DNA from: Fabrea salina
Lineage: Eukaryota > Ciliophora > Heterotrichea > Heterotrichida > Fabreidae
Direction: 5' to 3'
Length of the DNA stretch: 64,000 nt
Assembly: GCA_022984795.1 (NCBI GenBank)
Contig: JALIHJ010000028.1
Span: 124,001-188,000 of the forward strand
Position numbers and translations under genes: made by a program. How positions within the stretch are numbered: the first letter of the stretch is position 1; each line of letters begins with the position of its first letter. Under the pieces are notes generated by a model. It worked only from the letters and a program-made list of their open reading frames with translations, did no database searches and was not told where the DNA came from. Below, piece by piece: positions 40,232 to 64,000 of this stretch.

Positions 40232-41473
40232 ATGAGTAGTAATGACAAACTAGCCAGGGCCCAAGCACTAATCGAAGAAAAGAAAAAACAACTCTCAGAA
40301 CGAATCCAAAAAGTAATGACCACTCAGCAAAACCAAGAAAAGAAACAACAACAACGACAAAAAGAACTCGAAAAACAAAGAAAAGAAATCGAAAAGTGGC
40401 GCAAAGAAAAAGGCTTCAAACCCAAAAAACCCCCAGTAGACACCAAAACAGAGCTCCTAGAAGCAGAGTCGGATGTAGAGTCCCCCGTGACTACTATTCA
40501 CGAAGCCCCTGAAAGCCTAACACAAGAACCCTCAGAACAAAACTCAACTCCAGAAGTCCCTCAAGAAGAAACTTCCAGCGTCAAAAAAGACTCTGACTCC
40601 GAAAACGACTTAGACAGGTCTTTCCAGTTCGAAATAGCTTCCCAAATGAAACTAATACAAAGAGGTTACAAGCAAAAGTCCATGGAATTCGAAAACAAGA
40701 AACAAAACATCAAACATGAACTCCTCAAAGCTTTTTTCCACAACGAATTCTGGGCTGAAGAAGAACTTCAAGAATTCCAAACCTTCGGCAACCAAGAAGA
40801 GCTCAAACAAATCCTTGAAGAAGCCGAACAAAAACCTTCCAAAACTCAATCAGAAGACGAAGACTCCCAGAAACCCAAGTTACTTGTGTTCGAAAACGAG
40901 TCTCGCAAAGACTGGGCACAAATGAAGACTAAAAAACTCCAACAACTCCAACAAAGACAAACTGAAAGAACCCCTGAAAGAAAACCCAACCCCTCCAGAG
41001 ACCTTTCTCCCAAACACTCTGTTTTGTCCGACCAAACCAAACAAGCCATTGCTTCTAAATACCGCCGACACAAAAACCTGCCTAGCCTAGTGTACACTAA
41101 GCCTTCTAATCGCAAACTCATTAAAAACGCCATCTCCCAAGTGTGCTTAGCAGGCGAACCCAACCGAGGTAAACGCCAAGAAGTTTTAGAACTCATAGAC
41201 CAACTTCCGGAGGTGCTTTACTTTATAATAGTTTTTAAAAGCGAACTAGGGAAGAGAGACATGAAAGCCTTATACTCACATGAAACCACAAACGGAGAAG
41301 TAGCTAGGGTTTGGGGAGCTCCCCATCTACCTGAGCTGTTGGACAGCAGTATGGTAAAAGTATTTTTCAGGTACGATTCAGGAGCTAGAGAGTTCAAGCC
41401 TTTGCAGTGCAAGGACTTCATAATCGCAACTGATGCAGTTGCCCTAAACAAGATTCCTAAATTATACAGTTAA
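40232..41473 (+). CDS. CAMSAP/Patronin-type CKK-domain microtubule minus-end protein
   Basis: The 413-aa protein has an N-terminal coiled coil rich in Gln/Lys (residues 1-70), an acidic disordered middle and a C-terminal CKK domain (about residues 285-405): NRKLIKNAISQVCLAGEP, YFIIVFKSELGKRDMKALYS, GEVARVWGAP, KVFFRYDSGAREFKP. CKK domains recognise microtubule minus ends in CAMSAP/Patronin. The CH domain of animal CAMSAPs is absent. It may stabilise the long cortical microtubule ribbons of Stentor-like cells (inference). Its TAA shares TTAA with the Erv1 stop. Confidence 0.87.
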   Translation: MSSNDKLARAQALIEEKKKQLSERIQKVMTTQQNQEKKQQQRQKELEKQRKEIEKWRKEKGFKPKKPPVDTKTELLEAESDVESPVTTIHEAPESLTQEPSEQNSTPEVPQEETSSVKKDSDSENDLDRSFQFEIASQMKLIQRGYKQKSMEFENKKQNIKHELLKAFFHNEFWAEEELQEFQTFGNQEELKQILEEAEQKPSKTQSEDEDSQKPKLLVFENESRKDWAQMKTKKLQQLQQRQTERTPERKPNPSRDLSPKHSVLSDQTKQAIASKYRRHKNLPSLVYTKPSNRKLIKNAISQVCLAGEPNRGKRQEVLELIDQLPEVLYFIIVFKSELGKRDMKALYSHETTNGEVARVWGAPHLPELLDSSMVKVFFRYDSGAREFKPLQCKDFIIATDAVALNKIPKLYS

Positions 41474-45500: not shown

Positions 45501-48500
45501 TAGGTTCGTCAGCGTTAGGACAGGTTTCGTCGTTGCCCATAACTCCAAGCATCATCTGTTTGTTTTGGTTACTAGAGTCTCCAAACAAGTAAATCCCTGG
45601 TTCTTCAAAAGTATACGCAAAGGTAGAAATGCTTTGTTCAGTCACTAAAGTTTTCAAGTAGTCAAACTCAGAGTAGTCAAAGGCAGAATTAGTGTTGACT
45701 AAGGAGTCCTCCATGTAAACTGGGTAGTGGTCTTGAGTCACTGAGAAAACCATAGTGTCTCCAACGTCTATACAGATCACTGGGTTTCTAATGCTAGGAG
45801 TGGACTCTTGCAGTCTTCTGCCAGTTTGGTTCTGCATTGCTGAAGTTGTTCCGTAAAGACCCCTTACTTCTCCGTCCCCGAACGCAACAGACTTCACTTT
45901 GCAAGAAGTACCTGAATTGCAAGCTACTCTTCCGTAGTAACCTTCCATGCTTGACTCACTCATGTAAGTAGTGTTTCCGCTCACAGGGTCGTAAATCTTA
46001 AACCCAGCGTTAGCTCCAAAGGTTACTTGAGGAACTGAATTGCGGCAGCTTTGATCACACACCTCATTAACTTCTTCAACTTCGTCACACTCGCACAAAC
46101 CTATTCCCTGGCTTCTTTTTCCGCTTCCACCACAAGTGTCTTGACAGTCGTTGTCACTTTTGCAGTTGCCGAACTCGTCCCTTACCTGTCCTGGCTCACA
46201 CCTTTCGTAAATCTTTTCAGTGCAGTCTCCACTGCCGTTTGAGTCACTTCTGTCGTTTCCATCTCTGTCAATGTACTCGTAGCCTTTTTGGCAAATGCAA
46301 ATTTCTTCTCTCTTAAGGTACAGTCTGTTTTGGCCTTCGCAGAAACAACTTTTAGCACCTTCTTCTGAAGTAGCTCCTGAAGGACAAGTCTTGCAAGAAG
46401 TAGAAGCTGCTAAGTCGCTGTAAGTGCCAGCTGGGCAGGGCGTGCAAGTGTTTTGACTACCAGCAATGCTAGTGTCTGAGTAAGTTCCAGCAGGGCAAGG
46501 AGTTTCTTCGTAAGAGCCCGCTTGACAGTAGTAACCAGCACTGCATGCATAACCCCTTTCTTCTTCAATGCTAGTAGGAGTGGGCGTAGTAGACTTTCCT
46601 AAGCAAATGTAGCCTGGGTTGCAAGTGTCGCAGTAGATGTTGTCTGAAGTAGCGTACTGTCCAGGAGGGCAATCTTTGCAAACAGGAACAATGTTTTGCC
46701 CCACTCTCCTTGCTTTCTCTGCTACAGTTCCTGGCTCACAGCTTTGTTGTTGAGAAGACCCTTCTGGGCATATGAAGCCTTCGTCGCATTTAAACGGAAG
46801 AGTGTCAGTGTCTTCTGGTGAGTACCCAGGGCAGTAGTAACCTGCTGGGCATATTTTACCACTAGGACTTAAGTTGTCGCAGAACTTGCCCTTTTCGCAT
46901 GCAATAGGTTCGTAAGTCCCACTTGGACAATAAGTGCCCACGTCGCAAGGAGTGTAGCCTGTGGACTTCGAAAGGCAAAAGTAACCAGCTGGGCAAACTT
47001 GGAGTTCTGGTATTTTTCCAGCTTGGTGTCCAGGTGAGTAGTAGCCTCTAGGAGAGTCTACAGGAGTTAAGCTTCCAGCTGGACAATAAAAGCCAGGCCT
47101 GCATGGGTAGTTTGTTACGTTTCCAATTCCTTCGTTGTCGCAAATGTGTCCTGCAGGGCAAGTAACACAACTGCTAGAAGACTTTGCTTTCTCATTGGGA
47201 GAGTAAGTTCCTCTCGGGCACTCAACAGGTTCACTTGACCCCGCCGGACAGTAAGCGCCAGCAGGGCAAGCTTTAGGAACAGGGTCGTTTGGAATACAGT
47301 AAAACCCAGCCTCGCAATCTGAACAGTCAGAAGCAGAGGCACCTCCTTTAGAAGTTCTGAACTTACCCAGTGGACAGGGAGTGGGCAACAAAGTTCCTTC
47401 CAAGCAGTAGTGACCTTCAGGACAAGGCTCTCCAAACCCTAAGTTAGTAAAGGAGTCAGGACTGTCAGTATTACTTCCACTTTCACAGTAAAACCCAGCT
47501 TTGCAGTCTCCTTGGATGCTTCCATTTTGGCAGTACTTTCCAGGAGGACAAGCCATGCAGTGTTTTTTGTCTTGAAGTCCAGTTTTGTCAGTGTAAGTTC
47601 CTGGTGGACAGTTAGTTGCGGGTTGGGAAGTTCCTGCTTCGCAGTATTTTTCGGCTGGGCAAATCACAGGAGTAGTAATAGCTCCAGGACCACAGTAGTA
47701 ACCATAAGGGCACTCCAAACAAGAAGACTGTCCTGTAAATGGCTGGTACTCGCCGTTTTGACACTTAACTTTAGTTCCAGAGGAGCTTCCTTCTGGGCAC
47801 TTATACCCAGCAGGGCATAGTGTAGGTGTAACTGTGTTGGTATCACAGTAGAAACCTGGAGGGCAGTTTTTGCATGAATCTTGGCCAATCTGGTCTTGGT
47901 ACTTACCAGCAGCGCACTCTTTCTCAGACGCTGAGTTGCTGGGGCAGTAGTAACCAGCTCTGCATATTTTAGTAAGTGGCTTGTCAGTAACTTCTCCTGA
48001 TTCACAGTAGTAACCAGCAGCACAAACTGAGGTAACAGAAGTGCCTGCTCTGTCTTTGCAGTAGAAACCAGCAGGACAAGAAGCGCAGTCTGTGGATTTG
48101 GATTTTCCTTGGGCTCCTTGGTAAGTTCCTGGAGCGCAGGGAGTGGGCATTTCAGACCCTTCTTCACAGTAGTAACCTGAAGGGCAAATGTCTCCTGTTA
48201 GTCCGTCTCTAGGCCTGTTTGTAGAAGCTCCTTCTTTGCAGTAGTAACCTTCTTCACAGTTCCCTGTTACTGCAGCTAAGCCAGTAGTTTCACAATACTT
48301 ACCAGGAGTGCACTTTACAGGTTCAACACTTCCTGCTGGGCAGAAGTGACCTTTGGGACATACTGCTCCTTGGGCACTGTTGTCTGGGTCTGCTTTAACT
48401 GCTCCCTGGGTACAGTAGTAACCTCCATTACAGTTTCCGTCTGGGGCAGTGTTTGCGGTTCCTTCACAGTACTTTCCTGGAGGACAACTTATGCACTGAG

Positions 48501-51500
48501 TGCTTTCCCAACGACCTTGTAGTGGATTGTAAGTTCCTTCTGGGCAATCAATCTTGTTTGAGGTCCCTGTAGGGCAGTAGTAACCTGCATCGCATAGAGT
48601 TGGAGTTTCAGTTGCTGCGTTAGGACAATAGTAGCCCCTAGGACAAGTTTTGCAGGAGCTCTGTAGAGTTTGGTCTTGGTAAGTTCCAGGTGGGCAGTCT
48701 TTTTCTTCACTACTACCTTCTGGGCAGTAATGGCCTTTTGTGCATCCTCCCGAAGCAGGCATTAGTTCATAGCTTCCAGCCACACAGTAGAATCCAGCCG
48801 CACAGTCGCCACTGGTAGCTGAGAGTCCTGCATCTCCACAGTACTTTCCTTGGGGGCACTGTATGCAGTCGTCAGATTCATCATTTCCTTGAGAACTAAG
48901 GTAGCTTCCTTTGGGGCAAGCAATTGGTGAAATTGAACCTTCAGGGCAGTAGTGTCCTACAGGGCAGACATTTCCTGTAACTCCGTCGGTTGGAGATGCA
49001 TCAGAGGACTTTCCTATGCAATAGTAGCCAGGACTGCACTTACCAGTAGGAGAGTCTAGCGCATCACTATCGCAGTAGTAACCTCCGTCGCACTCTTTTG
49101 CGTAAGCTATTCCTGAAGGGCAGTAGTACCCCGCTACACATTTGCCTCCTCTCGAGTCTCCTGGCAAAGCAGTTCCTGGGTTCTTAGTTTTCGAACCAAT
49201 TTTGCAGAAATAACCTCCGTCGCAGTCGTTTGTGGGTGCGCTGTTTCCTGTTCCTTGGCAATACTTTCCTGGAGTGCACTGTACGCACTCTGACTGCTCA
49301 GTAATTCCTTCTCTGGGGTTGTAAGTTCCTTCTGGACAAGGGTACTCATTGTTGAATTTAGTTCCTTCTGGACAGTAGTGACCTACTGGGCAAATGTTAG
49401 CGGTGTAGTCGCTTGTGCCTGTTTCACAAAAGTAACCCTTTGGACAAGCACTGCAGTCAGTTTGCCTGTCTAAGTCTTGGTAGGTCCCTGCTGGGCAGTT
49501 TGTGGCTTCATAGGATCCAACGGGGCACTTCTGACCTTTGGTGCAGTAGTGTTTTTCTGTTCCGTCTTCGTTTGGACGAGGAACTCTTGTGCCAGCAAAG
49601 CAGTAAAATCCTCCATCACAGTCACCTTCAACGGCTGAGAGTCCAGTACTAGTGCAGTACTTTCCTTGGGTGCAGTCTCCACAAGCAGTATCGGATTCAG
49701 ACAGAGTGTCTGGGTTAAAACTTCCGGATGGACAGGGGAGCTGAATGGGAGTTCCTTGAAGACAGTAGTAGCCTGCTTCGCATGAACCTTGATCTGAAGT
49801 AGTTGCGTCTGGCTTCTTAAGGGTACCTTTAGTTTTGCACCAGTAACCCGGATCGCACTTTCCTGATTCAGTAGTCAGCCCTTTTTCTGAGCAGTAATAT
49901 CCTGGAGTACAGTCTTGGCATTCGCTTTCTTGAGTCAATCCTTTGCGAGAACCAAAAGTTCCAACTGGGCAATCTTCAGGGATTTGCACGTCGGCTTCAC
50001 AATAAGAACCTTCAGTGCAAGGCTTAGGCTCTTTCAGCTGCTTTTCGTCACAGTAAAACCCTTCGGGACAGTCATGGCATGAACCTTGTGCGTAGAGTCT
50101 GTTGAACTTGGGAGCTTGGCAGAGTAGTTCTGCGCTTTGGCCAGCAGTAGTGTAGGTTCCAGGGTCTGCAATGTTTTGCTTGCCCCAATAAGAACCAACA
50201 GGGCAGTAGTACCCAGCTTCACATTCGTTTGCAGAAATGTTAGCCTCGTCTCCTTTACAGAACTTGCCTGCTGTGCACGGTCTACACCAAGAGCTATCCT
50301 TTGCTCCTGTGTCTGGATTGTAAGAACCTGGAGGGCAGTCTCTTTTTCCCGGGAACCCTGGTTCACAGTAACCACCTGCTGAGCAGTCTGAGCTAGCTGG
50401 AGTTCCTGAAGTACTCCCTTCGCTGCACTGGTAACCTGAAGTGCAGTACCCGTCTGCCACCATTAGTCCTGGCTGCGAGCAGTAAGACCCCTCAGAGCAG
50501 TTAGTGCAGTCGGTTTCTTTTGTGAGTCCTAGTTCACGTCCTAGTTTCCCTTTAGGGCAGAATATTGGCTCGCTAATTCCAGCTGTGCAGTAGTAACCAA
50601 CAGGACAAATTATAGGTTCTGCAGTTCCAAGTGGGCAGTAGGAACCTGCAGGACAGGTTGAGCAGTCTCCAGAAGAGGCCCCAGCAGTTTCTCTTCTATA
50701 TTCACCTCCAGGACATGGGTTCATAAAAGGCCCGTGTGAACCTCCAGGGCAGTAGTAGCCAGGGGAGCACTCTCCTATGTCTGAATAAGAACCTAAAATA
50801 GTGTATTTTCCATCTGATGAGTTTACACATTCGCCAAGACTAGTGGCACCTGCAGTTTCTCTTTTTTTGCCTGCTGGACAGGGAGTGGGTTCTTTAGAGT
50901 TGGGTCCACAGTAATGACCTTTGGGACACTCAATTTTAGTTGAGGTTTCTGTGCCTTCTGGACAATAGTAGCCCGCTGGGCAATCTGTCTTAGCTGAGTC
51001 TCCTGTTCCTGCATCACACATGTATCCAGCTGGGCAAGGATAGCACTCGTAAGCACCAGGTTTTGAGTAAGTTTTAGCAGGACATTGCAGTTCCGTAGTG
51101 CTGCCTTCTGGGCAGTAGTTTCCTTCTGTGCAGGCTGAGCATGATGATTTTCCGGATGCACCGTTGAAAGTTCCTTTAGAGCACAGAGTAAAAGTAGGAG
51201 AACCTTCTAGACAAAAAGCCCCTGCTGGGCAGTCAGTGCAATCTGCGGAATCGGTTAAGTTGTAAAGGGTAGTGTATTTTCCCGCTGGGCATGGATGCTG
51301 AGTAGGTCTTTCTGTCTTTAAGGGACAATAGTGACCAGGTGCACATCTTCCAGAAATAAACTCAGCTCCTCTTTCACAGTATTTTCCTGCTTCACAGTCT
51401 GTACAGTCACTAGAATCATCTGATCCGATCTCCCAAAGATATTGTCCTGCTGGACAAGCGTTCTGGTGACTGAATTTAGTTCCAGCTGGGCAATAGTGGC

Positions 51501-54330
51501 CTCTTGGACATCTGTCTCTAGAAGTTGAAGTTGACCCGTAAGGACAGTAGAAGCCTTGTGTGCAGTCAGCTGAGCAGCTACCGAATACAGTGTTACCAGT
51601 GCTATCAGATTCTTTCCCAGCGGGGCAAGGATGCTGCTCTGGGTACTCAGTTCCTGTTAAACAAACGTGTCCTGGTGCACAAATTGTACTGCTACTAGTC
51701 ATTCCTAGCTCATCACAAGCTTTCCCTGCATCACACCTTGAGCACTCCCATATGAATCCGAGATCTGTTGAGCCAGTATAAGTTCCAATAGGGCATTTTA
51801 CTTCTTCAGAACCGGGAGTGCAAAAATGCCCTTGAGAGCAAGCAGTACAAGTATCACTACCTTGATCCTTTCCAGGCGTAGTTTTTCCAGCATCACAAAA
51901 CTCAGGAAAACTGCTTCCAGCAAGGCAATAAGTTCCAATGTGGCAAGGATATTCCGCAATGTTGCTTCCTTCAGGACAGTGCTTCCCCGGGGTGCATTGT
52001 GCACAATCACCAACTTGATCTTGGTCAGCACCGTTGTTAAAAGTTCCCGCTGGGCAGGTGAATGTATCGCCGTAAGCTGTTCTTTCTAGGCAGTAGTGGC
52101 CTTTTGGGCAGGGCTTTTCGGTATCAGAACCTCTTGGGCAGTACTTTCCAGCAGTACAGGGAGTACAATCACTTAATTGTGTTGCTCCACCACTAGTTCT
52201 AACGTAACCAGGAGGGCATTCAGTTTGAGTGTTTGCAGAGTTCTTGTATAGAGGAATAGGCGAGCAAAAACTACCTTTTTCACAAGTAGCTGGGCTGTTA
52301 GGATCATCACATTGACTGCCAGCAGGACAAGAAATACATCCAAACCCTTGGTCAGGTTTGGTTCCTCTAGGGCAAGTCCAAACTCCAGTGTTAGGTTCCT
52401 TTACTATCTGGGCTCCAGTGGCTGAAGTACAAGTACTTTGTGCTGGCTTGCTAGAGTATTTTCCCAAAGCACAAGCTGTGCAGGCAGATGCCCCTCCAGA
52501 TGAAACAAATCCAGGAGGACAGGGTTTCCTTCTAATTCCGTCACATTCATATCCTGCAGTGCAAGTAGTGCATGTAGTTCCTACCAAGTACTCACCTAAA
52601 GCACAAGGCAACTTAGACATCGTAAATGCAGGATAGTAAGTGTCTTCGTCAATACATTCCATCCAACCTTCAAGAGAGAACGTTCCAGAATCACAAGAAA
52701 CTGCAGAACCACTTGTACACTTATGTCCTATGGGGCACAGTTTGCAAAAAGTCTTAGTTGAGTCTGAAATAGAGTAAGGGTCGCAAAACAAGTCCTGTCC
52801 TAAGTCAAACGAATAGCACTGCTTTCCTGAAGGACAACTAGTGCAAGTGCTTGTTCCTCCAGGAGAATACTCTCCTTGTGAACATTTGACCGGGGCATTA
52901 GTTCCGCCAGCGCACTTATAGCCAGGAGGACAAGGGTGAATTGCATGCCCGTCACCTAAAACATAGAATCCAGCGGGTACAGTTACAGTGTCTCCGTGAG
53001 GGTCACAAAGCTTGCCAGAACAAGTAGAGCAAGTTGTAGATCCCCATGCTGCGGTTTCTCCGACGGAGCACATCACAGGCATTCCTGATCCATCGCATGA
53101 GTGGTTAGGAGGACAAGGAATACAGTTCCAGTAGCCTAAAGGAGAGTACTCACCGCCGGAACAAGCTGTTTTTTCTGAGTACATGTCGCAAGAGAAGCCT
53201 TGAGGGCAGGGTTCGCATTTTCCGTTGTAAGAGTACATTCCAGCTTGACAGGGTGAGATTGCTTTCACAGTTATTTGAGAACCAGGAAGGGGATCAATAC
53301 CGTTGTAGTCAGAGTCAGTAGAGGTGACTTTATGAGTTATAGTGCAGGAGTATTGAAGTGCGTTGCCTGTAGCTGTTAGTTTGATATACTGAGGAACATC
53401 GTAGTCGTCGGTGTTAAAAGTTAAGCTAGTAGGATTGACTGCAAAGTCTGAGCAGCTACTTGGGGATAAGCTAACAGTAACCGGGTGCGTAGGTTGAGTG
53501 TGAAGCACTATGCTGTACTGCCCTCCTTTTTCTTGCAAAAACACCACTTCGTCAGAAATAAGTACAGCAGCCTGGGTTTCTTGGTCAACTGATTTCAAAA
53601 GCATACGTGAGTTTGAGGTTTCTAAGCCAAAGAAGCCAAAGAAACTCCACTCAGCAGAAGCTGGTTCTTCTTGGTAAACACTTTGTTCTTGAGTTTGATT
53701 GAGTGGTAAGGTTTCAGCTTCTAGCACGTGGACCGGTTCTGAGTAACCTTCTACTGACTCAACTTCCACAACGAAGAAGTAAGTGCCTTGAGTACGAACC
53801 TTAAGTCCAGGAATTTCGAATTCGGGTTCAGAAACCTGGAAGGTCCCCCCATTTTCTAGATAAGTTCCGTCGTGTAACTGTAAAGAAACCAGTCCTCGGT
53901 AGTCAGTCATTAAGTAGCCAAATTCGTCGTAGAGCTCCACAAAAACTTGAAGGGCCTCCCCTGAGTAGACTTCTTGCTTGCTTGAGTAGACCTTTACTTG
54001 ATTAATGGTTTGAGAAGGCCTTACAATTATTTCACCAGAAAAAGCCGGTTCGGCACCGTCAGTGAGGCATACAACTCTGTAGGTTCCGCCTTTGAAGATC
54101 TTGAGTTGCTTGAAGTGGAAAACCTCAGAAAGGGAACTGAGGACGGTTGGACCAGCAAGGAAGGCCTGGGGCTCAGGCACCAAGCATTCAATTTCGAAAG
54201 CTCTGTCTGGCAAGTCCTTGACAGCAACCTGCAGGGAAAAGTTTTCGCCTGCTTTGACTTCTTTAGGAGCTTCTCGGACAGTAAGTTCTAGCGCATAGCT
54301 GAGAGCTAGCAAAAGAATAAAGCTTTTCAT
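42565..54330 (-). CDS. giant GCC2/GCC3-repeat membrane protein with cytoplasmic coiled coil
   Basis: A single 3921-codon frame with no intron needed. A signal peptide (FILLLALSYALELTV) is followed by filamin/Ig-like beta domains (residues to about 350). Next come dozens of Cys-rich GCC2/GCC3 (ephrin-receptor-like) modules such as CPAGYYCPEGT (about 360-2690) and a cupredoxin-like domain (ICIDVGDTMVFSVTQDHYPVY, FEEPGIYLFGD; about 2757-2933). One membrane helix follows (VIGLMLILVVAILILTALSYYY, about 2966-2990), then about 930 residues of cytoplasmic coiled coil. It could link the cell surface to the cortex. The ligand is unknown. The whole gene is on the minus strand. Confidence 0.88.
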   Translation of the reverse strand: MKSFILLLALSYALELTVREAPKEVKAGENFSLQVAVKDLPDRAFEIECLVPEPQAFLAGPTVLSSLSEVFHFKQLKIFKGGTYRVVCLTDGAEPAFSGEIIVRPSQTINQVKVYSSKQEVYSGEALQVFVELYDEFGYLMTDYRGLVSLQLHDGTYLENGGTFQVSEPEFEIPGLKVRTQGTYFFVVEVESVEGYSEPVHVLEAETLPLNQTQEQSVYQEEPASAEWSFFGFFGLETSNSRMLLKSVDQETQAAVLISDEVVFLQEKGGQYSIVLHTQPTHPVTVSLSPSSCSDFAVNPTSLTFNTDDYDVPQYIKLTATGNALQYSCTITHKVTSTDSDYNGIDPLPGSQITVKAISPCQAGMYSYNGKCEPCPQGFSCDMYSEKTACSGGEYSPLGYWNCIPCPPNHSCDGSGMPVMCSVGETAAWGSTTCSTCSGKLCDPHGDTVTVPAGFYVLGDGHAIHPCPPGYKCAGGTNAPVKCSQGEYSPGGTSTCTSCPSGKQCYSFDLGQDLFCDPYSISDSTKTFCKLCPIGHKCTSGSAVSCDSGTFSLEGWMECIDEDTYYPAFTMSKLPCALGEYLVGTTCTTCTAGYECDGIRRKPCPPGFVSSGGASACTACALGKYSSKPAQSTCTSATGAQIVKEPNTGVWTCPRGTKPDQGFGCISCPAGSQCDDPNSPATCEKGSFCSPIPLYKNSANTQTECPPGYVRTSGGATQLSDCTPCTAGKYCPRGSDTEKPCPKGHYCLERTAYGDTFTCPAGTFNNGADQDQVGDCAQCTPGKHCPEGSNIAEYPCHIGTYCLAGSSFPEFCDAGKTTPGKDQGSDTCTACSQGHFCTPGSEEVKCPIGTYTGSTDLGFIWECSRCDAGKACDELGMTSSSTICAPGHVCLTGTEYPEQHPCPAGKESDSTGNTVFGSCSADCTQGFYCPYGSTSTSRDRCPRGHYCPAGTKFSHQNACPAGQYLWEIGSDDSSDCTDCEAGKYCERGAEFISGRCAPGHYCPLKTERPTQHPCPAGKYTTLYNLTDSADCTDCPAGAFCLEGSPTFTLCSKGTFNGASGKSSCSACTEGNYCPEGSTTELQCPAKTYSKPGAYECYPCPAGYMCDAGTGDSAKTDCPAGYYCPEGTETSTKIECPKGHYCGPNSKEPTPCPAGKKRETAGATSLGECVNSSDGKYTILGSYSDIGECSPGYYCPGGSHGPFMNPCPGGEYRRETAGASSGDCSTCPAGSYCPLGTAEPIICPVGYYCTAGISEPIFCPKGKLGRELGLTKETDCTNCSEGSYCSQPGLMVADGYCTSGYQCSEGSTSGTPASSDCSAGGYCEPGFPGKRDCPPGSYNPDTGAKDSSWCRPCTAGKFCKGDEANISANECEAGYYCPVGSYWGKQNIADPGTYTTAGQSAELLCQAPKFNRLYAQGSCHDCPEGFYCDEKQLKEPKPCTEGSYCEADVQIPEDCPVGTFGSRKGLTQESECQDCTPGYYCSEKGLTTESGKCDPGYWCKTKGTLKKPDATTSDQGSCEAGYYCLQGTPIQLPCPSGSFNPDTLSESDTACGDCTQGKYCTSTGLSAVEGDCDGGFYCFAGTRVPRPNEDGTEKHYCTKGQKCPVGSYEATNCPAGTYQDLDRQTDCSACPKGYFCETGTSDYTANICPVGHYCPEGTKFNNEYPCPEGTYNPREGITEQSECVQCTPGKYCQGTGNSAPTNDCDGGYFCKIGSKTKNPGTALPGDSRGGKCVAGYYCPSGIAYAKECDGGYYCDSDALDSPTGKCSPGYYCIGKSSDASPTDGVTGNVCPVGHYCPEGSISPIACPKGSYLSSQGNDESDDCIQCPQGKYCGDAGLSATSGDCAAGFYCVAGSYELMPASGGCTKGHYCPEGSSEEKDCPPGTYQDQTLQSSCKTCPRGYYCPNAATETPTLCDAGYYCPTGTSNKIDCPEGTYNPLQGRWESTQCISCPPGKYCEGTANTAPDGNCNGGYYCTQGAVKADPDNSAQGAVCPKGHFCPAGSVEPVKCTPGKYCETTGLAAVTGNCEEGYYCKEGASTNRPRDGLTGDICPSGYYCEEGSEMPTPCAPGTYQGAQGKSKSTDCASCPAGFYCKDRAGTSVTSVCAAGYYCESGEVTDKPLTKICRAGYYCPSNSASEKECAAGKYQDQIGQDSCKNCPPGFYCDTNTVTPTLCPAGYKCPEGSSSGTKVKCQNGEYQPFTGQSSCLECPYGYYCGPGAITTPVICPAEKYCEAGTSQPATNCPPGTYTDKTGLQDKKHCMACPPGKYCQNGSIQGDCKAGFYCESGSNTDSPDSFTNLGFGEPCPEGHYCLEGTLLPTPCPLGKFRTSKGGASASDCSDCEAGFYCIPNDPVPKACPAGAYCPAGSSEPVECPRGTYSPNEKAKSSSSCVTCPAGHICDNEGIGNVTNYPCRPGFYCPAGSLTPVDSPRGYYSPGHQAGKIPELQVCPAGYFCLSKSTGYTPCDVGTYCPSGTYEPIACEKGKFCDNLSPSGKICPAGYYCPGYSPEDTDTLPFKCDEGFICPEGSSQQQSCEPGTVAEKARRVGQNIVPVCKDCPPGQYATSDNIYCDTCNPGYICLGKSTTPTPTSIEEERGYACSAGYYCQAGSYEETPCPAGTYSDTSIAGSQNTCTPCPAGTYSDLAASTSCKTCPSGATSEEGAKSCFCEGQNRLYLKREEICICQKGYEYIDRDGNDRSDSNGSGDCTEKIYERCEPGQVRDEFGNCKSDNDCQDTCGGSGKRSQGIGLCECDEVEEVNEVCDQSCRNSVPQVTFGANAGFKIYDPVSGNTTYMSESSMEGYYGRVACNSGTSCKVKSVAFGDGEVRGLYGTTSAMQNQTGRRLQESTPSIRNPVICIDVGDTMVFSVTQDHYPVYMEDSLVNTNSAFDYSEFDYLKTLVTEQSISTFAYTFEEPGIYLFGDSSNQNKQMMLGVMGNDETCPNADEPIQPRTGASMHVLGTKLDENLVLKIDWEVVIGLMLILVVAILILTALSYYYGKLTWDLPSKKKVPYRKRNHKMRIEGDEGTRTTMQLVIEGKEIDNSGSDADEVKEMLFHDKPDVATLEPTENLDENNQIDNTLISSIKERIRSNNRVVEEFLDKNSNEIQDRLKSLQQETEDLSNVLYELLEPLESNPGRTRRRPTSSFNQLDTSTLTVAGTVDSDYQEAIKEIEENSELLEQDKQKLMSELQNQLQSLENNLSQDKYQNSEHLKERLNKRSQQRRQLAQEKQKLQEEAKSMNKRHQNEKRQLEKDLEDQENQLEQEFNQEKQQVREQVFGQKARELHEQMQNKIAADPEESRKYLAEYEEQVKNLESSLSINQMKMHQDLLKKLEERKKQRQAQSQTSKKQQIDNLINKQELEKKNIQTRQHEIVTLEAVNSAIKGLYDSEEDSEIKELEQKHKAQLIEAETQLKEPEIPTATPKANKQKVNLEKKREQLLQTIEKADPQEKEQLMTMLKDTETKLQKFTEQQTQDQKKDLEQRLESRRQKRQEKLQAIKKQQEEERNSLELQKKLQHNQNNSQKLEKAIKEAISNIPEDQQLSAVKQLLEAKHEKERYKLQEKLKKKLAKKQKQVIQDVLRRKANDLEMVRKEFKQKSRAAGKDQAAIAQIQKEESEALNKLDYHYIKECESEQEQAWKNQQQLNQQELLDLVDSQLAEMRSYLNQPGQDLVAHDYENKLKQEKQTIEEEGKKKLEELENKKSQLKHQREAQQRELEEMIAKERSREERIQKKKQLMEQKKALQEKQRRQREELEKRGNISKEQMEQLIAQHQKELGELESVIARERERQMSVLNHKLAEKRNRKKEFESSVMRMKEEQERWEKEIEELPGIKNKQATTLLLKWRRYPKRSMKEVEKSVKNKEPHERTLPVMATQEQPTPQEDSRIQEVIQRVQRIEEVVANIDVKQFDGLVNALNGLERSLKSNK

Positions 54331-58724: not shown

Positions 58725-59492
58725 ATGCATTTGTTTATACTGATAGGAGTGGCTTGGGGATGGAACTACCAAGGCCAAGACTCCTGGCAAGAGTCATGCC
58801 AACAAGGAGACCAGTCACCTGTAAACGTCGACAAAGAAGGAGCTGACAACTTAGACTCAGATGACTCAATGAAAATGGTACTTCTAGGCGAAACCACTTC
58901 TTGGAAAGTAGAAAACACAGGCAACATGATAAGGGTGCACGCTGACCTAGGTTACATCGAAGTAGGCCGAAACGAAGACAAGCGCCAGTTCAACGTGCGT
59001 TTTTTAGAGTTCCACGTTCCTTCTGAACACCAGTTTGACGGAGTGGAGTTTCCGATGGAATTGCAAGCAGTCATGGAAGTTGAAGACAAACACTGGGAAC
59101 GCGACAAAGCCAACATGGCCGTTTTAAGCGTGATCATTAAAGCTGGCAAAGAGAACTATTTTTTGAACACATTACAAGTGTGGGAACTGCCAGGTCCTGA
59201 AAATTCTCTTTACTTAAGAAACAGTTCCAACATAAACCTTCGGGAGTTAGTGTGGAATACTGATCAGTACTACTTTTATAAGGGGTCAGCAACTCACCCA
59301 GACTACGACTGCAGAACTGACGTGCTTTGGTTTGTGATTGAAGATATAAAAGAAGCTAAGGATTGGCAAATTGATCAGTTCACACAACTGTTCCCTGAAG
59401 GCAACTCTAGGAAAGTGCAGAGAGAAAACCCTACTGTGTACTACTCTTCAGCTGTTGTTTTGGTTGCTTCGATTGGACTTTTAATACTTTAA
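58725..59492 (+). CDS. alpha-carbonic-anhydrase-like protein lacking zinc ligands
   Basis: The 255-aa secreted protein has a signal peptide (MHLFILIGVAWGWNY), the alpha-CA fold marks DQSPVNV, EFHVPSEHQFDG, FPMELQAV and YYFYKGSATHP, and a hydrophobic C-terminus (SSAVVLVASIGLLIL) fitting a GPI-anchor signal. Of the three zinc His, only one remains: the first is Glu (LEFH) and the third Gln (MELQ). It is therefore probably inactive, like animal CA-related proteins. ATG 58725 is chosen, since the upstream open frame lies within the FHA gene. Confidence 0.85.
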   Translation: MHLFILIGVAWGWNYQGQDSWQESCQQGDQSPVNVDKEGADNLDSDDSMKMVLLGETTSWKVENTGNMIRVHADLGYIEVGRNEDKRQFNVRFLEFHVPSEHQFDGVEFPMELQAVMEVEDKHWERDKANMAVLSVIIKAGKENYFLNTLQVWELPGPENSLYLRNSSNINLRELVWNTDQYYFYKGSATHPDYDCRTDVLWFVIEDIKEAKDWQIDQFTQLFPEGNSRKVQRENPTVYYSSAVVLVASIGLLIL

Positions 59493-59516: not shown

Positions 59517-59843
59517 CTATAGGGTTCTGTTTTGTTGAAGTCTTCTTTGCATCAAAGAACTCTTCTGGATAGTTCGAGCGATTTCTTTGTGTGTACTCTT
59601 TATTTTGAGTCGACTTGGTTGACTGACGTTCAGGTACTGATCTGACTTAGTTTTTAAGTTTCCAAGGTCTTGAATGTACCCTGTTCTGGGTTGGCAAGGG
59701 TCTTGGGGCAATAGTACCGGGCTTAGGTTTTGTGTTTTTCGGAGAACTTTCAAGAGTTTAGGGTGCTTTGCGCGACTTTTGAATAAAGCCTTACCAGGAC
59801 TTTCGAGTCCAGGCGATTTTGAGGAGTCTGTAGCACTGTCCAT
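59517..59843 (-). CDS. small basic unknown protein
   Basis: The 108-aa protein is rich in Ser, Lys, Leu and Arg (SKSPGLESPGKALFKSRAKHPK, IQKSSLMQRRLQQN), with no domain or membrane segment. It ends with TAG 24 nt from the carbonic-anhydrase-like stop, and lies 54 nt after the deadenylase-like gene. Low-complexity disorder is likely. Its position between genes supports a real but lineage-specific gene. Confidence 0.5.
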   Translation of the reverse strand: MDSATDSSKSPGLESPGKALFKSRAKHPKLLKVLRKTQNLSPVLLPQDPCQPRTGYIQDLGNLKTKSDQYLNVSQPSRLKIKSTHKEIARTIQKSSLMQRRLQQNRTL

Positions 59844-59897: not shown

Positions 59898-61055
59898 TTA
59901 AATCTCAAACTCTGCAAGTAGAGGAAAGTGGTCGCTTGGAATGACTTCGTTAGGAATGGTTTGGAACTGATTGAGACTAGCGAAGCTAGGGCACATTAGA
60001 ACTCTTTTAGGAAGGATTTGTCCCTCAAACCAAATATAGTCTACAGTAGTGCGTTGTCTTGGTAAAAACTGAGTCGGGAAAGTTTCTTTGCCAAGGATGG
60101 ACTTGTAAGAACTCTTTAGAGCTAAAGGGAAATTAACTACACTACTGAGTTGGTCTGAAGGTCTTCGGTTCTCAAAAGTAGGCTTGGCTGTGCCTTCTGA
60201 AATATCAAGTCCTAAGTTGTGCATATAAAATATTAACTGACTGTTTTGCTTTAGGTACTTAGGTTCTGGAGCTTCGTAAAAGGCCCTTCTGGCAATCCTC
60301 ACAGCTTCATACAAGTCAATTGGAAGGCTTGTCATTTTTCCACTTAAAAAGTACTGACTAGCCCTTGCTAGATCTAAGGAACCTGTGCTGATCAGCTTGT
60401 AAATAGCACTGCTTGGAGTAACATTAAAGTCTCCAGATAGAATTACTGAGCCTCCATATTTCTTTTTAGCTTTTTTTAAGGTTTTGGTCATTAAGATCAG
60501 TTGGGTGAGTTTTAAGTCCCCTCTTTTCTCGTTAAAGAGTATGTGAGTCGTTCCGAAGATAACTATTTTACTTGGGTCCTCTACTAGTGCTAGCACACAT
60601 ACTAATCCAATGTTATCTCTGTCTAAAAACCTTGCTAACTCAGGGTCTTTGGCTAGAAACTCCACTTCTATTTTTTCGATCAAAATGAACTTGTGGGCTT
60701 TCCAAGCAATCAAACACCCGTCAAGCTTGCCTCCAGTCTTTTTCTTGTAGTGACATTGATAGTCCCTTAAAGTGTCTTGGTAGCCAGTAAACTCGGCATC
60801 TACTTCTTGCATTCCTAAGATATCAGGGTTGAACTCCTTGATTTCCTGGCACACAAGCCAAGACCTTCTAGACAGGTTAAGTATTTCTTCAGGGTAAGGG
60901 TACATATTCAAGTGCATCTTTAAACAGGAGTCAGCCAGAACGTTGTAACTCATAACTCTAAGGTTGCCTTGACTGCCTCTGCTCCAGACTCGTTCTTGGT
61001 TGAATTCTTTAAGCAGTTCAATCCAAGTATCTTCTTTTAAGTAACTCTCTTCCAT
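59898..61055 (-). CDS. CCR4/Angel-type endonuclease-exonuclease-phosphatase
   Basis: The 385-aa protein belongs to the EEP superfamily, CCR4/Angel branch: LRVMSYNVLADSCLK, the metal-ligand Glu in GMQEVDAEF, VILSGDFNVTPSSAIYKL, and the final SDHFPLLAEF, with catalytic Asp and His. CCR4 enzymes shorten poly(A); Angel enzymes remove 2',3'-cyclic phosphates. I cannot choose between the two. No LRR domain is fused. It is the last gene of a run with 5-nt gaps. Confidence 0.87.
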   Translation of the reverse strand: MEESYLKEDTWIELLKEFNQERVWSRGSQGNLRVMSYNVLADSCLKMHLNMYPYPEEILNLSRRSWLVCQEIKEFNPDILGMQEVDAEFTGYQDTLRDYQCHYKKKTGGKLDGCLIAWKAHKFILIEKIEVEFLAKDPELARFLDRDNIGLVCVLALVEDPSKIVIFGTTHILFNEKRGDLKLTQLILMTKTLKKAKKKYGGSVILSGDFNVTPSSAIYKLISTGSLDLARASQYFLSGKMTSLPIDLYEAVRIARRAFYEAPEPKYLKQNSQLIFYMHNLGLDISEGTAKPTFENRRPSDQLSSVVNFPLALKSSYKSILGKETFPTQFLPRQRTTVDYIWFEGQILPKRVLMCPSFASLNQFQTIPNEVIPSDHFPLLAEFEI

Positions 61056-61060
61056 TAATA

Positions 61061-61897
61061 TTATAAAAGTTTAAGAGGCTTAAAAGTTAACCTTGCCATT
61101 AAAAAGGCCCTTTTCCTACTCCAGTTGCAAGTTTCTGAGTCACAAAACCTTTTGCAGACAGAACACAACTGCGACCCTCCTAAGTCAGACTGGAGTCCTT
61201 TCATTCCTAAAGAACTGTACCACAAGCTCATTTTAGTTTGAGCTGAGTTCTGGTCTAGTTGGATGAACTTAAGAGCTTTCTGAAGTTTAAGCTTCTCTAA
61301 AAGAAGGTGCAGACTGTCGCCTTTAATTGAGTTGTTTTTCAAAGAAATTATCTGGACTTTTTGGTACTTTTTAAAGCCTTGAGCTAACAAAGCAACACCT
61401 AAGTCAGTAAGTTGGTTATCAGACAGTAAAAGTACCTTTAAAGAAATCAAAGAACCTATGCTTTGGCCCACTACAAAAGCCCCTTTGAAGCCTAAGTTGT
61501 TTCTTTCTAGATTCAAAACTTGAAGCGAACTTAACTGAGAAAATGACTTAGCTAAGTGGTCTGCTCCTTCAAAGTCTATTTGGTTGTCAGACAAGTTCAA
61601 CTCCCTTAAAACCTTGAGTTTTATAAGTGCAGCAGAAACACTGAGAGTGCCTTCTTTGTCTATTTGGTTTTTAGATAAATCCAAAAACAACACTTCGTTC
61701 TGCTTGCGCAGACCGTCACTTAAAATTTGAACTCCTTTAGACCCGAACCCGTAGTTAGACAGGTTCAGACTCTGGAGCTTCCCAAAGCTAAGTAAGCCTT
61801 TAACTACTTGTCTAGCTTTAGTCACTCCTAAAGGTTGCAAGTACCTGTTGAGCACTTTAGTGTTCACTACTTTTATTTGGCCAAGTCTGTCTTTCAT
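61061..61897 (-). CDS. leucine-rich repeat (RNI-like) protein
   Basis: The 278-aa protein consists of ribonuclease-inhibitor-type LRRs, e.g. LQSLNLSNYGFGSKGVQILSDGL, LFLDLSKNQIDKEGTLSVS and LQVLNLERNNLGFKGAFVVGQ, each about 28 residues. A Cys-rich C-terminus (LCSVCKRFCDSETCNW) may bind metal. RNI-like LRR proteins act as scaffolds for GTPases or ubiquitin ligases, but no partner is evident. It starts 5 nt after the MED6 stop and ends 5 nt before the deadenylase-like ATG. Confidence 0.87.
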   Translation of the reverse strand: MKDRLGQIKVVNTKVLNRYLQPLGVTKARQVVKGLLSFGKLQSLNLSNYGFGSKGVQILSDGLRKQNEVLFLDLSKNQIDKEGTLSVSAALIKLKVLRELNLSDNQIDFEGADHLAKSFSQLSSLQVLNLERNNLGFKGAFVVGQSIGSLISLKVLLLSDNQLTDLGVALLAQGFKKYQKVQIISLKNNSIKGDSLHLLLEKLKLQKALKFIQLDQNSAQTKMSLWYSSLGMKGLQSDLGGSQLCSVCKRFCDSETCNWSRKRAFLMARLTFKPLKLL

Positions 61898-61902
61898 ATT
61901 AT

Positions 61903-62358
61903 TTACTTACTTTCGAAAGGCAGGTCTCTTATGAAACTAGATAAGTTCTCAAGTGACTGGTTCAATGAAAAAGAAAGGTTCCTAATTTTGCAGTCCAAAA
62001 CTCGGTGCAAAGAAGGGGCTTCGTACACAATTCCGCCCAACACATAGTAAAGAGCCAAAGGGGTGATTTTCCTTTCACTGTGTCTGAACTGCTTTCTGAT
62101 ATGGAAAATCCCCGCCTCAGGAATAGAGTGCACCAAAGTGTACTCAAGTCCTTTCATAAACTTAAGTTTCCCTAGGTCTTCTTTGGTCTTTTCGTTGTTG
62201 GCAGCTTTGTCGTAAAACACTGAAATGTAGAAGTAGTCCATCACTGTTCCGTTGTCCAGGATGTTGTGTTTCAGCCAAAACTCGTCACTCCAGCTCAAAC
62301 CTGTCATTTCTTTGTGACTTATCCCTCTTGACTTTAGGGTTTCTTCTATTGACTCCAT
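61903..62358 (-). CDS. MED6: Mediator complex subunit 6
   Basis: The 151-aa protein matches MED6: SWSDEFWLKHNILDNGTVMDYFYISVFYD, GLEYTLVHSIPEAGIFHIRKQ, and the signature TPLALYYVLGGIVYEAPSLHRVLD. MED6 sits in the Mediator head and contacts RNA polymerase II. It is shorter than animal MED6 (about 246 aa) because the C-terminal tail is missing. It lies 5 nt from each neighbour. Confidence 0.9.
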   Translation of the reverse strand: MESIEETLKSRGISHKEMTGLSWSDEFWLKHNILDNGTVMDYFYISVFYDKAANNEKTKEDLGKLKFMKGLEYTLVHSIPEAGIFHIRKQFRHSERKITPLALYYVLGGIVYEAPSLHRVLDCKIRNLSFSLNQSLENLSSFIRDLPFESK

Positions 62359-62363
62359 TTATC

Positions 62364-63188
62364 TTAAATCTTCTTGAACAAAGGCTCCAGTCCCCACCTT
62401 GCTGACCCCTCTGCAAACAGCCCTAGAGAAACTCCTTGCAGTGCTGCTGAGTAGTGAACAGGCAACGCTGTAAACGGAATAAAAACCAAACCTATCATGT
62501 AATGGTGGATGTGCAAAACATGTGTTTTACTCAGCACTGCCCAAGCTAAACCCAAACAAACCACAACCACTCCTAAAGCAACTAGGTAAATCCACAGTCT
62601 TCCAAACTCATAAAGGAAGTAAAACTGAACCCCTAAAAGGCCCAACAAAGCAACCACCACTCCTCCAAAAATAACTTTAAGTGTATTTGAGTAACTGGCT
62701 ATGTCTTTGATATTAAAGGACACCTTTTTAAGTATTCCTTTGTCTAAGTAAGTGAAGTGCAGACTCACAAAAAAACAAAACCCGTAACACAAGTAGTTGT
62801 ACAACAAAAGCTGGTCTAGTTTGTTTTCCTGGCTTTTGTCCATAAGGGTGGCGTTAGGTCCCAACCAAAACATAACTAAGCCTACTAGTAAGTAGTAAAC
62901 AAACCCTAGCACTGAACCATTTCTTGCAGCTAAAGGGTTCTTCCTTTTAAGTCTCAGAGTGACTCCAGTCACGTACATGTACCCAGTCGCCACCAAAAAC
63001 AAGTAAAACACCAGTTTGAATAACGAAAACTTTGAACTGAAGTAAACTTCTTGGTAGAGCCCAGAATCCACACTTACTGAGGGCAACTCTAAGCACCCCA
63101 TCAGCACAGGGAGCAGTACTCCGCAGTAAACCAAGGCACAGAACTTGCGGTAGTGAACTCTGTGAGTTAGTTTGGGACTCTTTTCCAT
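62364..63188 (-). CDS. multi-membrane-span protein with His motif, tandem paralogue A
   Basis: The 274-aa protein has about seven hydrophobic segments. It shares with the next gene GYMYVTGVTLR, WLGPNATLMD, HFTYLDKG, a His-rich motif KTHVLHIHHYMIGLVFIP, and the end GSARWGLEPLFKKI. The HxxHxHH pattern next to a membrane helix resembles a metal- or heme-binding site (inference), not a known enzyme motif. No family name is known to me. It starts 5 nt after the paralogue's stop. Confidence 0.8.
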   Translation of the reverse strand: MEKSPKLTHRVHYRKFCALVYCGVLLPVLMGCLELPSVSVDSGLYQEVYFSSKFSLFKLVFYLFLVATGYMYVTGVTLRLKRKNPLAARNGSVLGFVYYLLVGLVMFWLGPNATLMDKSQENKLDQLLLYNYLCYGFCFFVSLHFTYLDKGILKKVSFNIKDIASYSNTLKVIFGGVVVALLGLLGVQFYFLYEFGRLWIYLVALGVVVVCLGLAWAVLSKTHVLHIHHYMIGLVFIPFTALPVHYSAALQGVSLGLFAEGSARWGLEPLFKKI

Positions 63189-63193
63189 TTAAG

Positions 63194-64000
63194 TTATTCA
63201 ATTTTATAAAATAAGGGGTCTAGACCCCAGCGGGCACACCCCTCTGTGTACAACCCTACACAAAGGCCTTGTATGAACGCAGCGTAAGAATTAGGAATAG
63301 CTGTCATAGGGAGAAATATCATTCCAACCATGTAGTGGTGCACATGCAAAATATGAGTTTTGCTCATATAAATTGCTATTATCATTAAACACCCTATAAG
63401 TCCCCCGTACAGTCCCACATAAAGCCAAAACCTATTAAACTGGTACAAGTAATAAAACTCTACAACAGTAATGAGTACAACCCCAATTGACAAGAACACA
63501 AACAGCACCCAGTCTTTCACAGTGTACCTTTTCATCTTTGCTATGTTTAAAGAAATCTTCTTCAAAGGCCCACTGTCTAAGTAAGAAAAGTGCAACATCA
63601 GCACAAAGGCTGAAGCGTAAATGCAGTAAAAAACCAAAAACTCGTCAAGGTTGTCAAAGGCTTCAATATCTATCAAAGTTGAGTTAGGACCTACCCAAAA
63701 CATCCCAAAACCCAACACCACAAACCCCAAAAAGTTCCAAGGCTTCCCGTCACGCCCCGCGAAAAAACTTGCCCGCTTAAAACGCAGAGTCACTCCTGTG
63801 ACGTACATGTAGCCCGAAACCAGTAAAGTCATGTAAAACCCTATCTTCAAAAGTGACAGTTGCCTTGAAAAATACACTTCGTGGTAGACCGAACTAGTTA
63901 CTTCGTAAGATGGAAGGAAAAAGCTAAGGCTCAGAATAAAAGGCAACAGAGAAATGTAAACTGACCCCCAAATCTTGCGATAATGGGGGTGAGATCTCAT
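63194..64000 (-). CDS. multi-membrane-span protein with His motif, tandem paralogue B
   Basis: The 268-aa protein is about the same length and plan as the preceding entry, with GYMYVTGVTLRF, WVGPNSTLID, HFSYLDSG, KTHILHVHHYMVGMIFLP and GCARWGLDPLFYKI. Identity is high in these motifs and low elsewhere, so the duplication is not recent. The ATG is the last base triplet of the window (64000-63998), so an upstream extension cannot be excluded. Confidence 0.78.
   Translation of the reverse strand: MRSHPHYRKIWGSVYISLLPFILSLSFFLPSYEVTSSVYHEVYFSRQLSLLKIGFYMTLLVSGYMYVTGVTLRFKRASFFAGRDGKPWNFLGFVVLGFGMFWVGPNSTLIDIEAFDNLDEFLVFYCIYASAFVLMLHFSYLDSGPLKKISLNIAKMKRYTVKDWVLFVFLSIGVVLITVVEFYYLYQFNRFWLYVGLYGGLIGCLMIIAIYMSKTHILHVHHYMVGMIFLPMTAIPNSYAAFIQGLCVGLYTEGCARWGLDPLFYKIE

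What the first reader, a model, noticed from the sequence alone, without database searches (positions are those of the whole stretch)
59898..64000. Five same-strand genes with exactly 5-nt gaps, operon-like
Seen: gaps of 61056-61060, 61898-61902, 62359-62363 and 63189-63193 are each 5 nt (TATTA, ATAAT, GATAA, CTTAA in gene sense) between TAA and ATG. There is no room for a separate promoter or 3' UTR. The genes are a CCR4/Angel nuclease, an LRR protein, MED6 and two TM paralogues. Inference: one polycistronic transcript, or promoters and poly(A) signals hidden in coding sequence. A fixed spacing could reflect termination-reinitiation.
Basis: partly seen in the sequence, partly recalled or inferred. 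Interest (0 to 1): 0.75.

Follow-up and report, generated by a model that had tools for sequence, protein, structure and literature searches.

The report
Tightly packed ciliate genes, not operon
Five neighbouring genes of a ciliate, most likely Fabrea salina, sit only five bases apart, but this fits the extreme packing seen in the sampled part of its genome and gives no good sign of a bacterial-style operon.

Summary
The four 5-nt gaps are real. The window lies in an 18.33-Mb genome that fits the heterotrich ciliate Fabrea salina. I modelled 225 genes in 312 kb. Gaps of 30 nt or less occur in every orientation: 61 of 115 tandem, 42 of 53 convergent, 16 of 54 divergent; eight convergent pairs interlock their stop codons. 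Opposite-strand pairs cannot be co-transcribed, so lack of room for a promoter or 3' UTR does not mark an operon. Orientation is random (115 of 222 pairs tandem). Heterotrich 3' UTRs have medians of 21-23 nt, some poly(A) tails starting right after UAA (Swart 2016, passages). Five nt is not favoured elsewhere (1 of 111 other tandem gaps); four in a row is expected 0.004-0.016 times per genome, an oddity without a mechanism. Leaky scanning, TURBS-type reinitiation and fusion introns were tested and not supported; trans-splicing was inconclusive. Best reading: five separate, abutting or overlapping mRNAs. I had no RNA data, so polycistronic read-through is not excluded.

The parts
63194..64000 (-). 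head gene TM2: multi-pass membrane protein paralogue, TAA stop; true start probably at 64036, outside the window (280 aa)
   Evidence: ORF L002:1495-2337; 45% identical to TM1; start context 80th percentile at 64036 against 12th at 64000
63189..63193 (-). 5-nt gap CTTAA
   Evidence: the 5' flanks of TM1 and TM2 share ATAACTTAA at or one base before the ATG, a possible trace of tandem duplication
62364..63188 (-). TM1: membrane protein, 274 aa, no Pfam family
   Evidence: one database relative, 99% identical with the same N-terminus (P0001)
62359..62363 (-). 5-nt gap GATAA
   Evidence: an AG straddles the stop codon and the gap
61903..62358 (-). MED6, Mediator subunit, 151 aa
   Evidence: PF04934 E 2.6e-31; PDB MED6 chains, best E 1.3e-20
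61898..61902 (-). 5-nt gap ATAAT
61061..61897 (-). leucine-rich-repeat protein, 278 aa
   Evidence: LRR_6 E 6.4e-12
61056..61060 (-). 5-nt gap TATTA
59898..61055 (-). Angel/CCR4-type exo-endo-phosphatase nuclease, 385 aa
   Evidence: PF03372 E 8.3e-16; angel homolog 2 chain 6rvz_A E 1.1e-33

Best explanation
This is an ordinary stretch of an extremely compacted heterotrich macronuclear genome, most likely Fabrea salina. Each of the five genes is probably transcribed on its own. Transcription of a gene would start within the last bases of its upstream neighbour or in the gap, giving a 5' UTR of a few to a few tens of nt, with the A-rich last bases acting as start-codon context. Each mRNA would be cleaved and polyadenylated at or just past its stop codon, in the gap or in the first bases of the next gene, so neighbouring mRNAs overlap slightly or abut. 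Shown here: the gaps, the genes, the compaction in all orientations in a 312-kb sample, random orientation, strong start contexts. Inferred: separate promoters, 5' UTR length and poly(A) positions, from published heterotrich 3' UTRs and from the impossibility of co-transcription at equally tight convergent and divergent pairs. The equality of the four gaps is taken as coincidence; the TM2-TM1 gap may be shaped by tandem duplication.
For: Gaps of 30 nt or less: 61/115 tandem, 42/53 convergent, 16/54 divergent; 8/53 convergent pairs interlock stops in 4 bp; five divergent pairs are 3-8 nt apart. Coding fraction 0.86. Tandem share 115/222, p=0.64; 8 same-strand runs of five or more genes seen, 6.9 expected. 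For gaps of 100 nt or less, 68% of 90 tandem gaps are 30 nt or less, 67% expected from half convergent plus half divergent. Heterotrich 3' UTR median 21-23 nt, some poly(A) tails directly after the stop, especially UAA (PMC4967479, passages); all four upstream genes here end in TAA. Similar A-rich start context in divergent and tandem classes, and 80th-96th percentile at the five starts, TM2 taken at 64036.
Against: No transcript data. Without a length cut, tandem gaps are shorter than the additive model predicts (53% at 30 nt or less, expected 35%, 95% range 22-49%), which co-transcription of some pairs could also give; missed small genes are another cause. No specific promoter motif was found in upstream coding ends. 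The four equal gaps are improbable by chance (0.004-0.016 expected per genome).
Confidence: 0.82

Rival explanations
1. Blurred transcription: mostly separate mRNAs, but inefficient termination or upstream starts also yield multi-gene transcripts from which only the first ORF is translated, as reported in microsporidia.
For: E. cuniculi RACE found mono- and multi-gene transcripts, ascribed to stochastic poly(A) signal use, with 5' UTRs under 7 nt (PMC2803860, passages). Genes here are also very tightly packed; E. cuniculi spacing was not compared in a call.
Against: No RNA data for this organism here. The heterotrich 3' ends reported for Condylostoma are short, and for one gene shown no reads extended beyond the poly(A) site (PMC4967479, figure legend).
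Confidence: 0.12
2. A true eukaryotic operon: one promoter in the 68-nt spacer between TM2 and a divergent 99-aa ORF (L002:2338-2405) drives a five-gene pre-mRNA, resolved by trans-splicing or processing.
For: Five same-strand genes with 5-nt gaps; tandem gaps are shorter than additive expectation when long gaps are kept. AGs that could serve as acceptors lie 25, 10, 6 and 33 nt before the four ATGs, one straddling stop and gap, the rest inside the upstream ORF.
Against: No AG lies wholly inside any of the four gaps. Orientation is random in the sample and runs of five or more genes occur about as often as expected by chance. By their families the genes have no evident common function. None of the 15 papers listed of 85 in a search for polycistronic/operon/ciliate/trans-splicing/nuclear genome is about ciliate operons by its title and abstract start, and heterotrich + intergenic + polycistronic gave 0 papers.
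Confidence: 0.03
3. Polycistronic mRNA translated by termination-reinitiation at a fixed 5-nt distance, or by leaky scanning.
For: The exact repetition of 5 nt; reinitiation in caliciviruses depends on short stop-start distance (PMC5972666, passages).
Against: 5 nt is used in 1 of 111 other tandem gaps. No TGGGA (TURBS core) in the last 120 nt of the four upstream ORFs. Only one possible -1 and one possible -4 stop-start overlap among 115 tandem pairs. The upstream ORFs hold 14, 9, 5 and 4 ATGs and strong start contexts, and ATG density before tight gaps is not lowered (p=0.45; LRR alone is low, 6th percentile), contrary to leaky scanning as found in green algae (PMC11892635, passages).
Confidence: 0.02
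4. The stops and gaps are inside missed tiny introns, and neighbouring ORFs form fused proteins.
For: Two junctions have in-frame GT..AG stretches as short as 20 nt (61898) and 17 nt (62359); introns here are mainly 15 nt.
Against: None of the four junctions has an in-frame 15- or 16-nt candidate; the other two have none under 47 nt; other lengths get only scattered support, 1 to 4 cases each. The MED6 and nuclease Pfam domains end 9 residues before the TAA codons.
Confidence: 0.01

Closest known systems
Compact heterotrich macronuclear genomes (Fabrea salina, Blepharisma stoltei)
   Same: Blepharisma: short intergenic regions, mainly 15/16-bp introns, CCCTAACA telomeres (PMC9942806, passages). 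Fabrea uses the standard code (PMC10553269, passage). A paper on the extremely streamlined Fabrea genome exists (title seen in reference lists; text not held).
   Different: Nothing tested differs from this kind; the run of four equal gaps is unusual and unexplained.
Heterotrich minimal 3' UTRs (Condylostoma magnum)
   Same: A 5-nt gap after UAA is compatible with 3' UTRs of 21-23 nt median or none (PMC4967479, passages).
   Different: 3' ends were not measured here.
Overlapping and multi-gene transcription in microsporidia
   Same: Tight gene packing in which neighbours must share sequence for transcript ends (PMC2803860, PMC3629993, passages).
   Different: Organism unrelated; no RNA evidence here.
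Bicistronic nuclear loci of green algae
   Same: Adjacent same-strand ORFs.
   Different: Those show weak ORF1 start context and fewer AUGs upstream of ORF2 (PMC11892635, passages); neither is seen at the head gene or in tight tandem pairs here.

Membership tests
Compact heterotrich genome | Short intergenic spacing in all orientations | tested here: met
   225 gene models in 312 kb, medians 29 (tandem), 9 (convergent), 61.5 (divergent) nt
Compact heterotrich genome | Tiny 15/16-nt introns | tested here: met
   15-nt class stands out (16 introns; most of the 12 shown begin GTAA and end TAG); 16-nt only 3 in the open-length run; 19 and 17 when only 15/16 were allowed
Compact heterotrich genome | CCCTAACA telomere repeat | tested here: met
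   First 200 bases of C24 are an array of AACACCCT-type repeats, with variants; compare PMC9942806
Fabrea salina | About 18.35-Mb macronuclear genome (figure recalled), standard code | tested here: met
   18,328,466 bases; stops TAA 170, TAG 35, TGA 20 of 225
Fabrea salina | Marker gene or named record identical to the species | not tested
   no rRNA or named Fabrea record was compared
Eukaryotic operon with trans-splicing | 3' splice acceptor between cistrons | tested here: inconclusive
   No AG wholly in any of the four gaps; one AG straddles stop and gap at 62363-62364; nearest AGs of the others lie 25, 10 and 33 nt before the ATG inside the upstream ORF
Eukaryotic operon with trans-splicing | Excess of tandem orientation and long same-strand runs | tested here: not met
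   115 of 222 tandem, p=0.64; 8 runs of five or more against 6.9 expected
Eukaryotic operon with trans-splicing | Polycistronic pre-mRNA | not testable with these tools
   no RNA data
Termination-reinitiation (TURBS type) | TURBS motif 1 core near the stop | tested here: not met
   no TGGGA in last 120 nt of four ORFs
Leaky-scanning bicistron (green algae) | Weak ORF1 context and AUG depletion | tested here: not met
   contexts at 80th-96th percentile; 14, 9, 5, 4 ATGs in upstream ORFs, of which only LRR is low (6th percentile); no depletion before 30 tight gaps, p=0.45

The most novel reading that the evidence does not exclude
The five genes form a real polycistronic unit in a ciliate macronucleus, with downstream ORFs translated by a short-distance termination-reinitiation that works best at 5 nt.
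Probability: 0.03. Interest if true: 0.8.

Novelty: new member of a known kind. Interest (0 to 1): 0.2.

Why it matters
It shows how far a free-living eukaryote can pack genes while probably keeping separate mRNAs. Promoters and poly(A) sites must then lie in neighbouring coding sequence, so the genome is a good test bed for minimal eukaryotic gene ends. As an operon claim it would matter greatly, but the evidence does not favour it.

Tried and rejected
Promoter motif in upstream coding ends: AGAACC was commoner in the last 60 coding nt before tandem gaps of 30 nt or less than at convergent gene ends (11 of 61 against 2 of 106, p=3.2e-4 among 400 6-mers tested). It was not enriched upstream of divergent starts and is commoner on the coding sense strand generally, so I rejected it as codon bias plus multiple testing. 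A scan of the 60 nt from -70 to -11 of all 225 starts against 450 control windows further upstream gave AT-rich words (such as TAATTA, 23 against 5) and CAT-containing words that look like antisense starts of divergent neighbours; I read these as intergenic composition, not a promoter element. AT content of the last 30 coding nt was slightly higher before gaps of 12 nt or less (0.659 against 0.623, uncorrected p=0.043, six comparisons in all); the first 30 coding nt showed nothing (p=0.48).

Correlation of successive tandem gaps (local compaction): rho 0.15, p=0.25, 57 pairs; 0.07 without the finding. Gap length modulo 3: no bias. Fusion by missed introns: rejected. The small ORF 59517-59843 as a sixth gene: coding score 1.8 over 108 codons, no Pfam, left open. 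Relatives of the nuclease in viral contigs: none. Rfam (gathering threshold) and tRNA scans of the window: none. Limits: my gene caller does not model same-strand overlaps (checked separately), drops genes scoring under 15 and misses small genes (for example the 99-aa ORF at L002:2406-2705), which lengthens some gaps. The sample is mostly one contig (262 of 312 kb from C24).
Full report
Observation. The minus-strand genes at 59898-61055, 61061-61897, 61903-62358, 62364-63188 and 63194-64000 are separated by four gaps of exactly 5 nt, TATTA, ATAAT, GATAA and CTTAA in gene sense, each between TAA and ATG. Family searches give an exo-endo-phosphatase nuclease closest in the PDB to angel homolog 2, an LRR protein, MED6, and two membrane paralogues 45% identical with no Pfam family. 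The head gene continues out of the window to an ATG at 64036 (280 aa). That ATG has a better start context than the one at 64000 (80th against 12th percentile of the modelled starts).

Start codons. In the nuclease, LRR and TM1 the next in-frame Met is residue 35, 223 and 30. The nuclease homology begins at residue 30, and TM1 shares HYRK with TM2 at residues 12-15, so their first ATG is effectively required. MED6 homology begins at residue 17, so Met18 cannot be excluded. Met1 has the better context (85th against 43rd percentile) and the stretch before Met18 scores as coding (log-odds 4.4).

Organism. The window is G000:C24:124001-188000 in a genome of 18,328,466 bases and 103 contigs. C24 begins with telomere-like AACACCCT repeats, all three stops are used (TAA 170, TAG 35, TGA 20 of 225), and 15-nt introns are favoured. 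Blepharisma has CCCTAACA telomeres and mainly 15/16-bp introns (PMC9942806, passages). Fabrea salina uses the canonical code (PMC10553269, passage). Its published macronuclear genome size, 18.35 Mb, is recalled; the paper is not held, and I saw only its title in reference lists. I therefore name it as most likely Fabrea salina; no marker gene was compared with a named record.

How unusual is the packing? I read 312 kb (about 1.7% of the genome; 262 kb of C24 and 50 kb of C1) and modelled 225 genes with a codon-pair gene finder allowing 15/16-nt introns (method). All 222 adjacent pairs were counted: 115 tandem, 54 divergent, 53 convergent. Gaps of 30 nt or less: 61 of 115, 16 of 54, 42 of 53. 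Gaps of 10 nt or less: 23 of 115, 5 of 54, 28 of 53. In 8 of 53 convergent pairs the two stop codons interlock in a 4-bp YTAR, and one pair overlaps by 33 bp. The medians are 29, 61.5 and 9 nt. Genes on opposite strands cannot share a transcript, yet they too are tightly packed, so absence of space for a promoter or 3' UTR is a general property here.

Is there a sign of operons? Orientation is at chance (115 of 222, p=0.64) and there are 8 same-strand runs of five or more genes against 6.9 expected. If each gene needs its own 5' and 3' flank, a tandem gap should equal half a divergent plus half a convergent gap. Among gaps of 100 nt or less this holds: 26% of 90 tandem gaps at 10 nt or less (23% expected) and 68% at 30 nt or less (67% expected). 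With a cut at 60 nt the figures are 28% (29% expected) and 75% (85% expected, range 72-95%). Using all gaps, tandem gaps are shorter than expected (53% at 30 nt or less against 35%, range 22-49%), a result against my reading, though missed small genes would also produce long convergent and divergent gaps.

Is 5 nt special? Outside the finding 1 of 111 tandem gaps is 5 nt. A run of four identical tandem gaps is expected about 0.004 (smoothed distribution) or 0.016 (unsmoothed) times per genome. This is improbable but chosen after the fact. Successive gaps are not significantly correlated, and there is no frame preference. The 5' flanks of TM1 and TM2 share ATAACTTAA before the ATG, so one gap may stem from tandem duplication. 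I treat the equality as coincidence and leave it flagged.

Translation models. Leaky scanning would require weak upstream starts and few AUGs, as in green algae (PMC11892635, passages). Here the five starts are at the 80th-96th percentile and the four upstream ORFs carry 14, 9, 5 and 4 ATGs; only the LRR ORF is poor in them (6th percentile). ATG density in the 30 genes before gaps of 12 nt or less does not differ from 106 convergent genes (p=0.45). Reinitiation after long ORFs is described as presumably very rare, with viral cases relying on TURBS or a viral transactivator (PMC5972666, passages); no TGGGA core lies in the last 120 nt of the four upstream ORFs. Among 115 tandem pairs only one possible -1 and one possible -4 stop-start overlap were found, unlike prokaryotic operons (recalled). 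Trans-splicing would need an AG: none lies wholly in a gap, one straddles the TM1 stop and the gap, and the others lie 10-33 nt before the ATG within the upstream ORF, so this test is inconclusive.

Mechanism. Heterotrich 3' UTRs have medians of 21-23 nt, and in Condylostoma some poly(A) tails start directly after the stop, above all UAA (PMC4967479, passages). In Encephalitozoon, 5' UTRs under 7 nt and multi-gene transcripts from weak poly(A) recognition were found by RACE (PMC2803860, passages). I infer separate, abutting or slightly overlapping mRNAs here, with possible read-through by-products. The A-rich bases of the gaps match the start context seen in the divergent and tandem classes alike. 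No specific promoter or poly(A) motif was identified, so that step stays inferred.

Verdict. The locus is an ordinary member of a known kind of compact genome, with one statistical oddity.

Noticed in passing
window 24720-24723, 41470-41473 and six more convergent pairs on C24 and C1: 8 of 53 convergent gene pairs interlock their two stop codons in a 4-bp YTAR (TTAA five times, CTAA twice, TTAG once), the smallest overlap two opposite stops allow, leaving no 3' flank at all.
   Followed up: partly
window 59517-59843, minus strand: A 108-codon ORF fills part of a 405-nt space between the nuclease and a convergent plus-strand gene at 58725-59492 (carbonic-anhydrase-like by eye, no search made); coding score near zero, no Pfam.
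   Followed up: partly
L002:2406-2705, plus strand (just right of the window): A 99-aa ORF with an apparent N-terminal hydrophobic stretch, divergent from TM2 with a 68-nt spacer; not called by my gene finder, no family search made.
   Followed up: no
window 26146-26583, minus strand: ORF with a weak zf-RVT match (E 0.0085, below cut-off), possibly a remnant of a non-LTR retrotransposon in the somatic genome.
   Followed up: no
window 42565-54330, minus strand: Uninterrupted 3,921-codon Cys-rich ORF with four Ephrin_rec_like stretches and, by eye, a long coiled-coil-like tail.
   Followed up: no
window 62364-63188 (TM1): Among about 5.8 billion predicted proteins one relative passed E 0.001, a 99% identical 274-aa protein on a 1,940-nt contig with the same start; outside it only the neighbouring paralogue was found in this genome. 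An orphan-looking membrane family with a HxHHY motif.
   Followed up: partly
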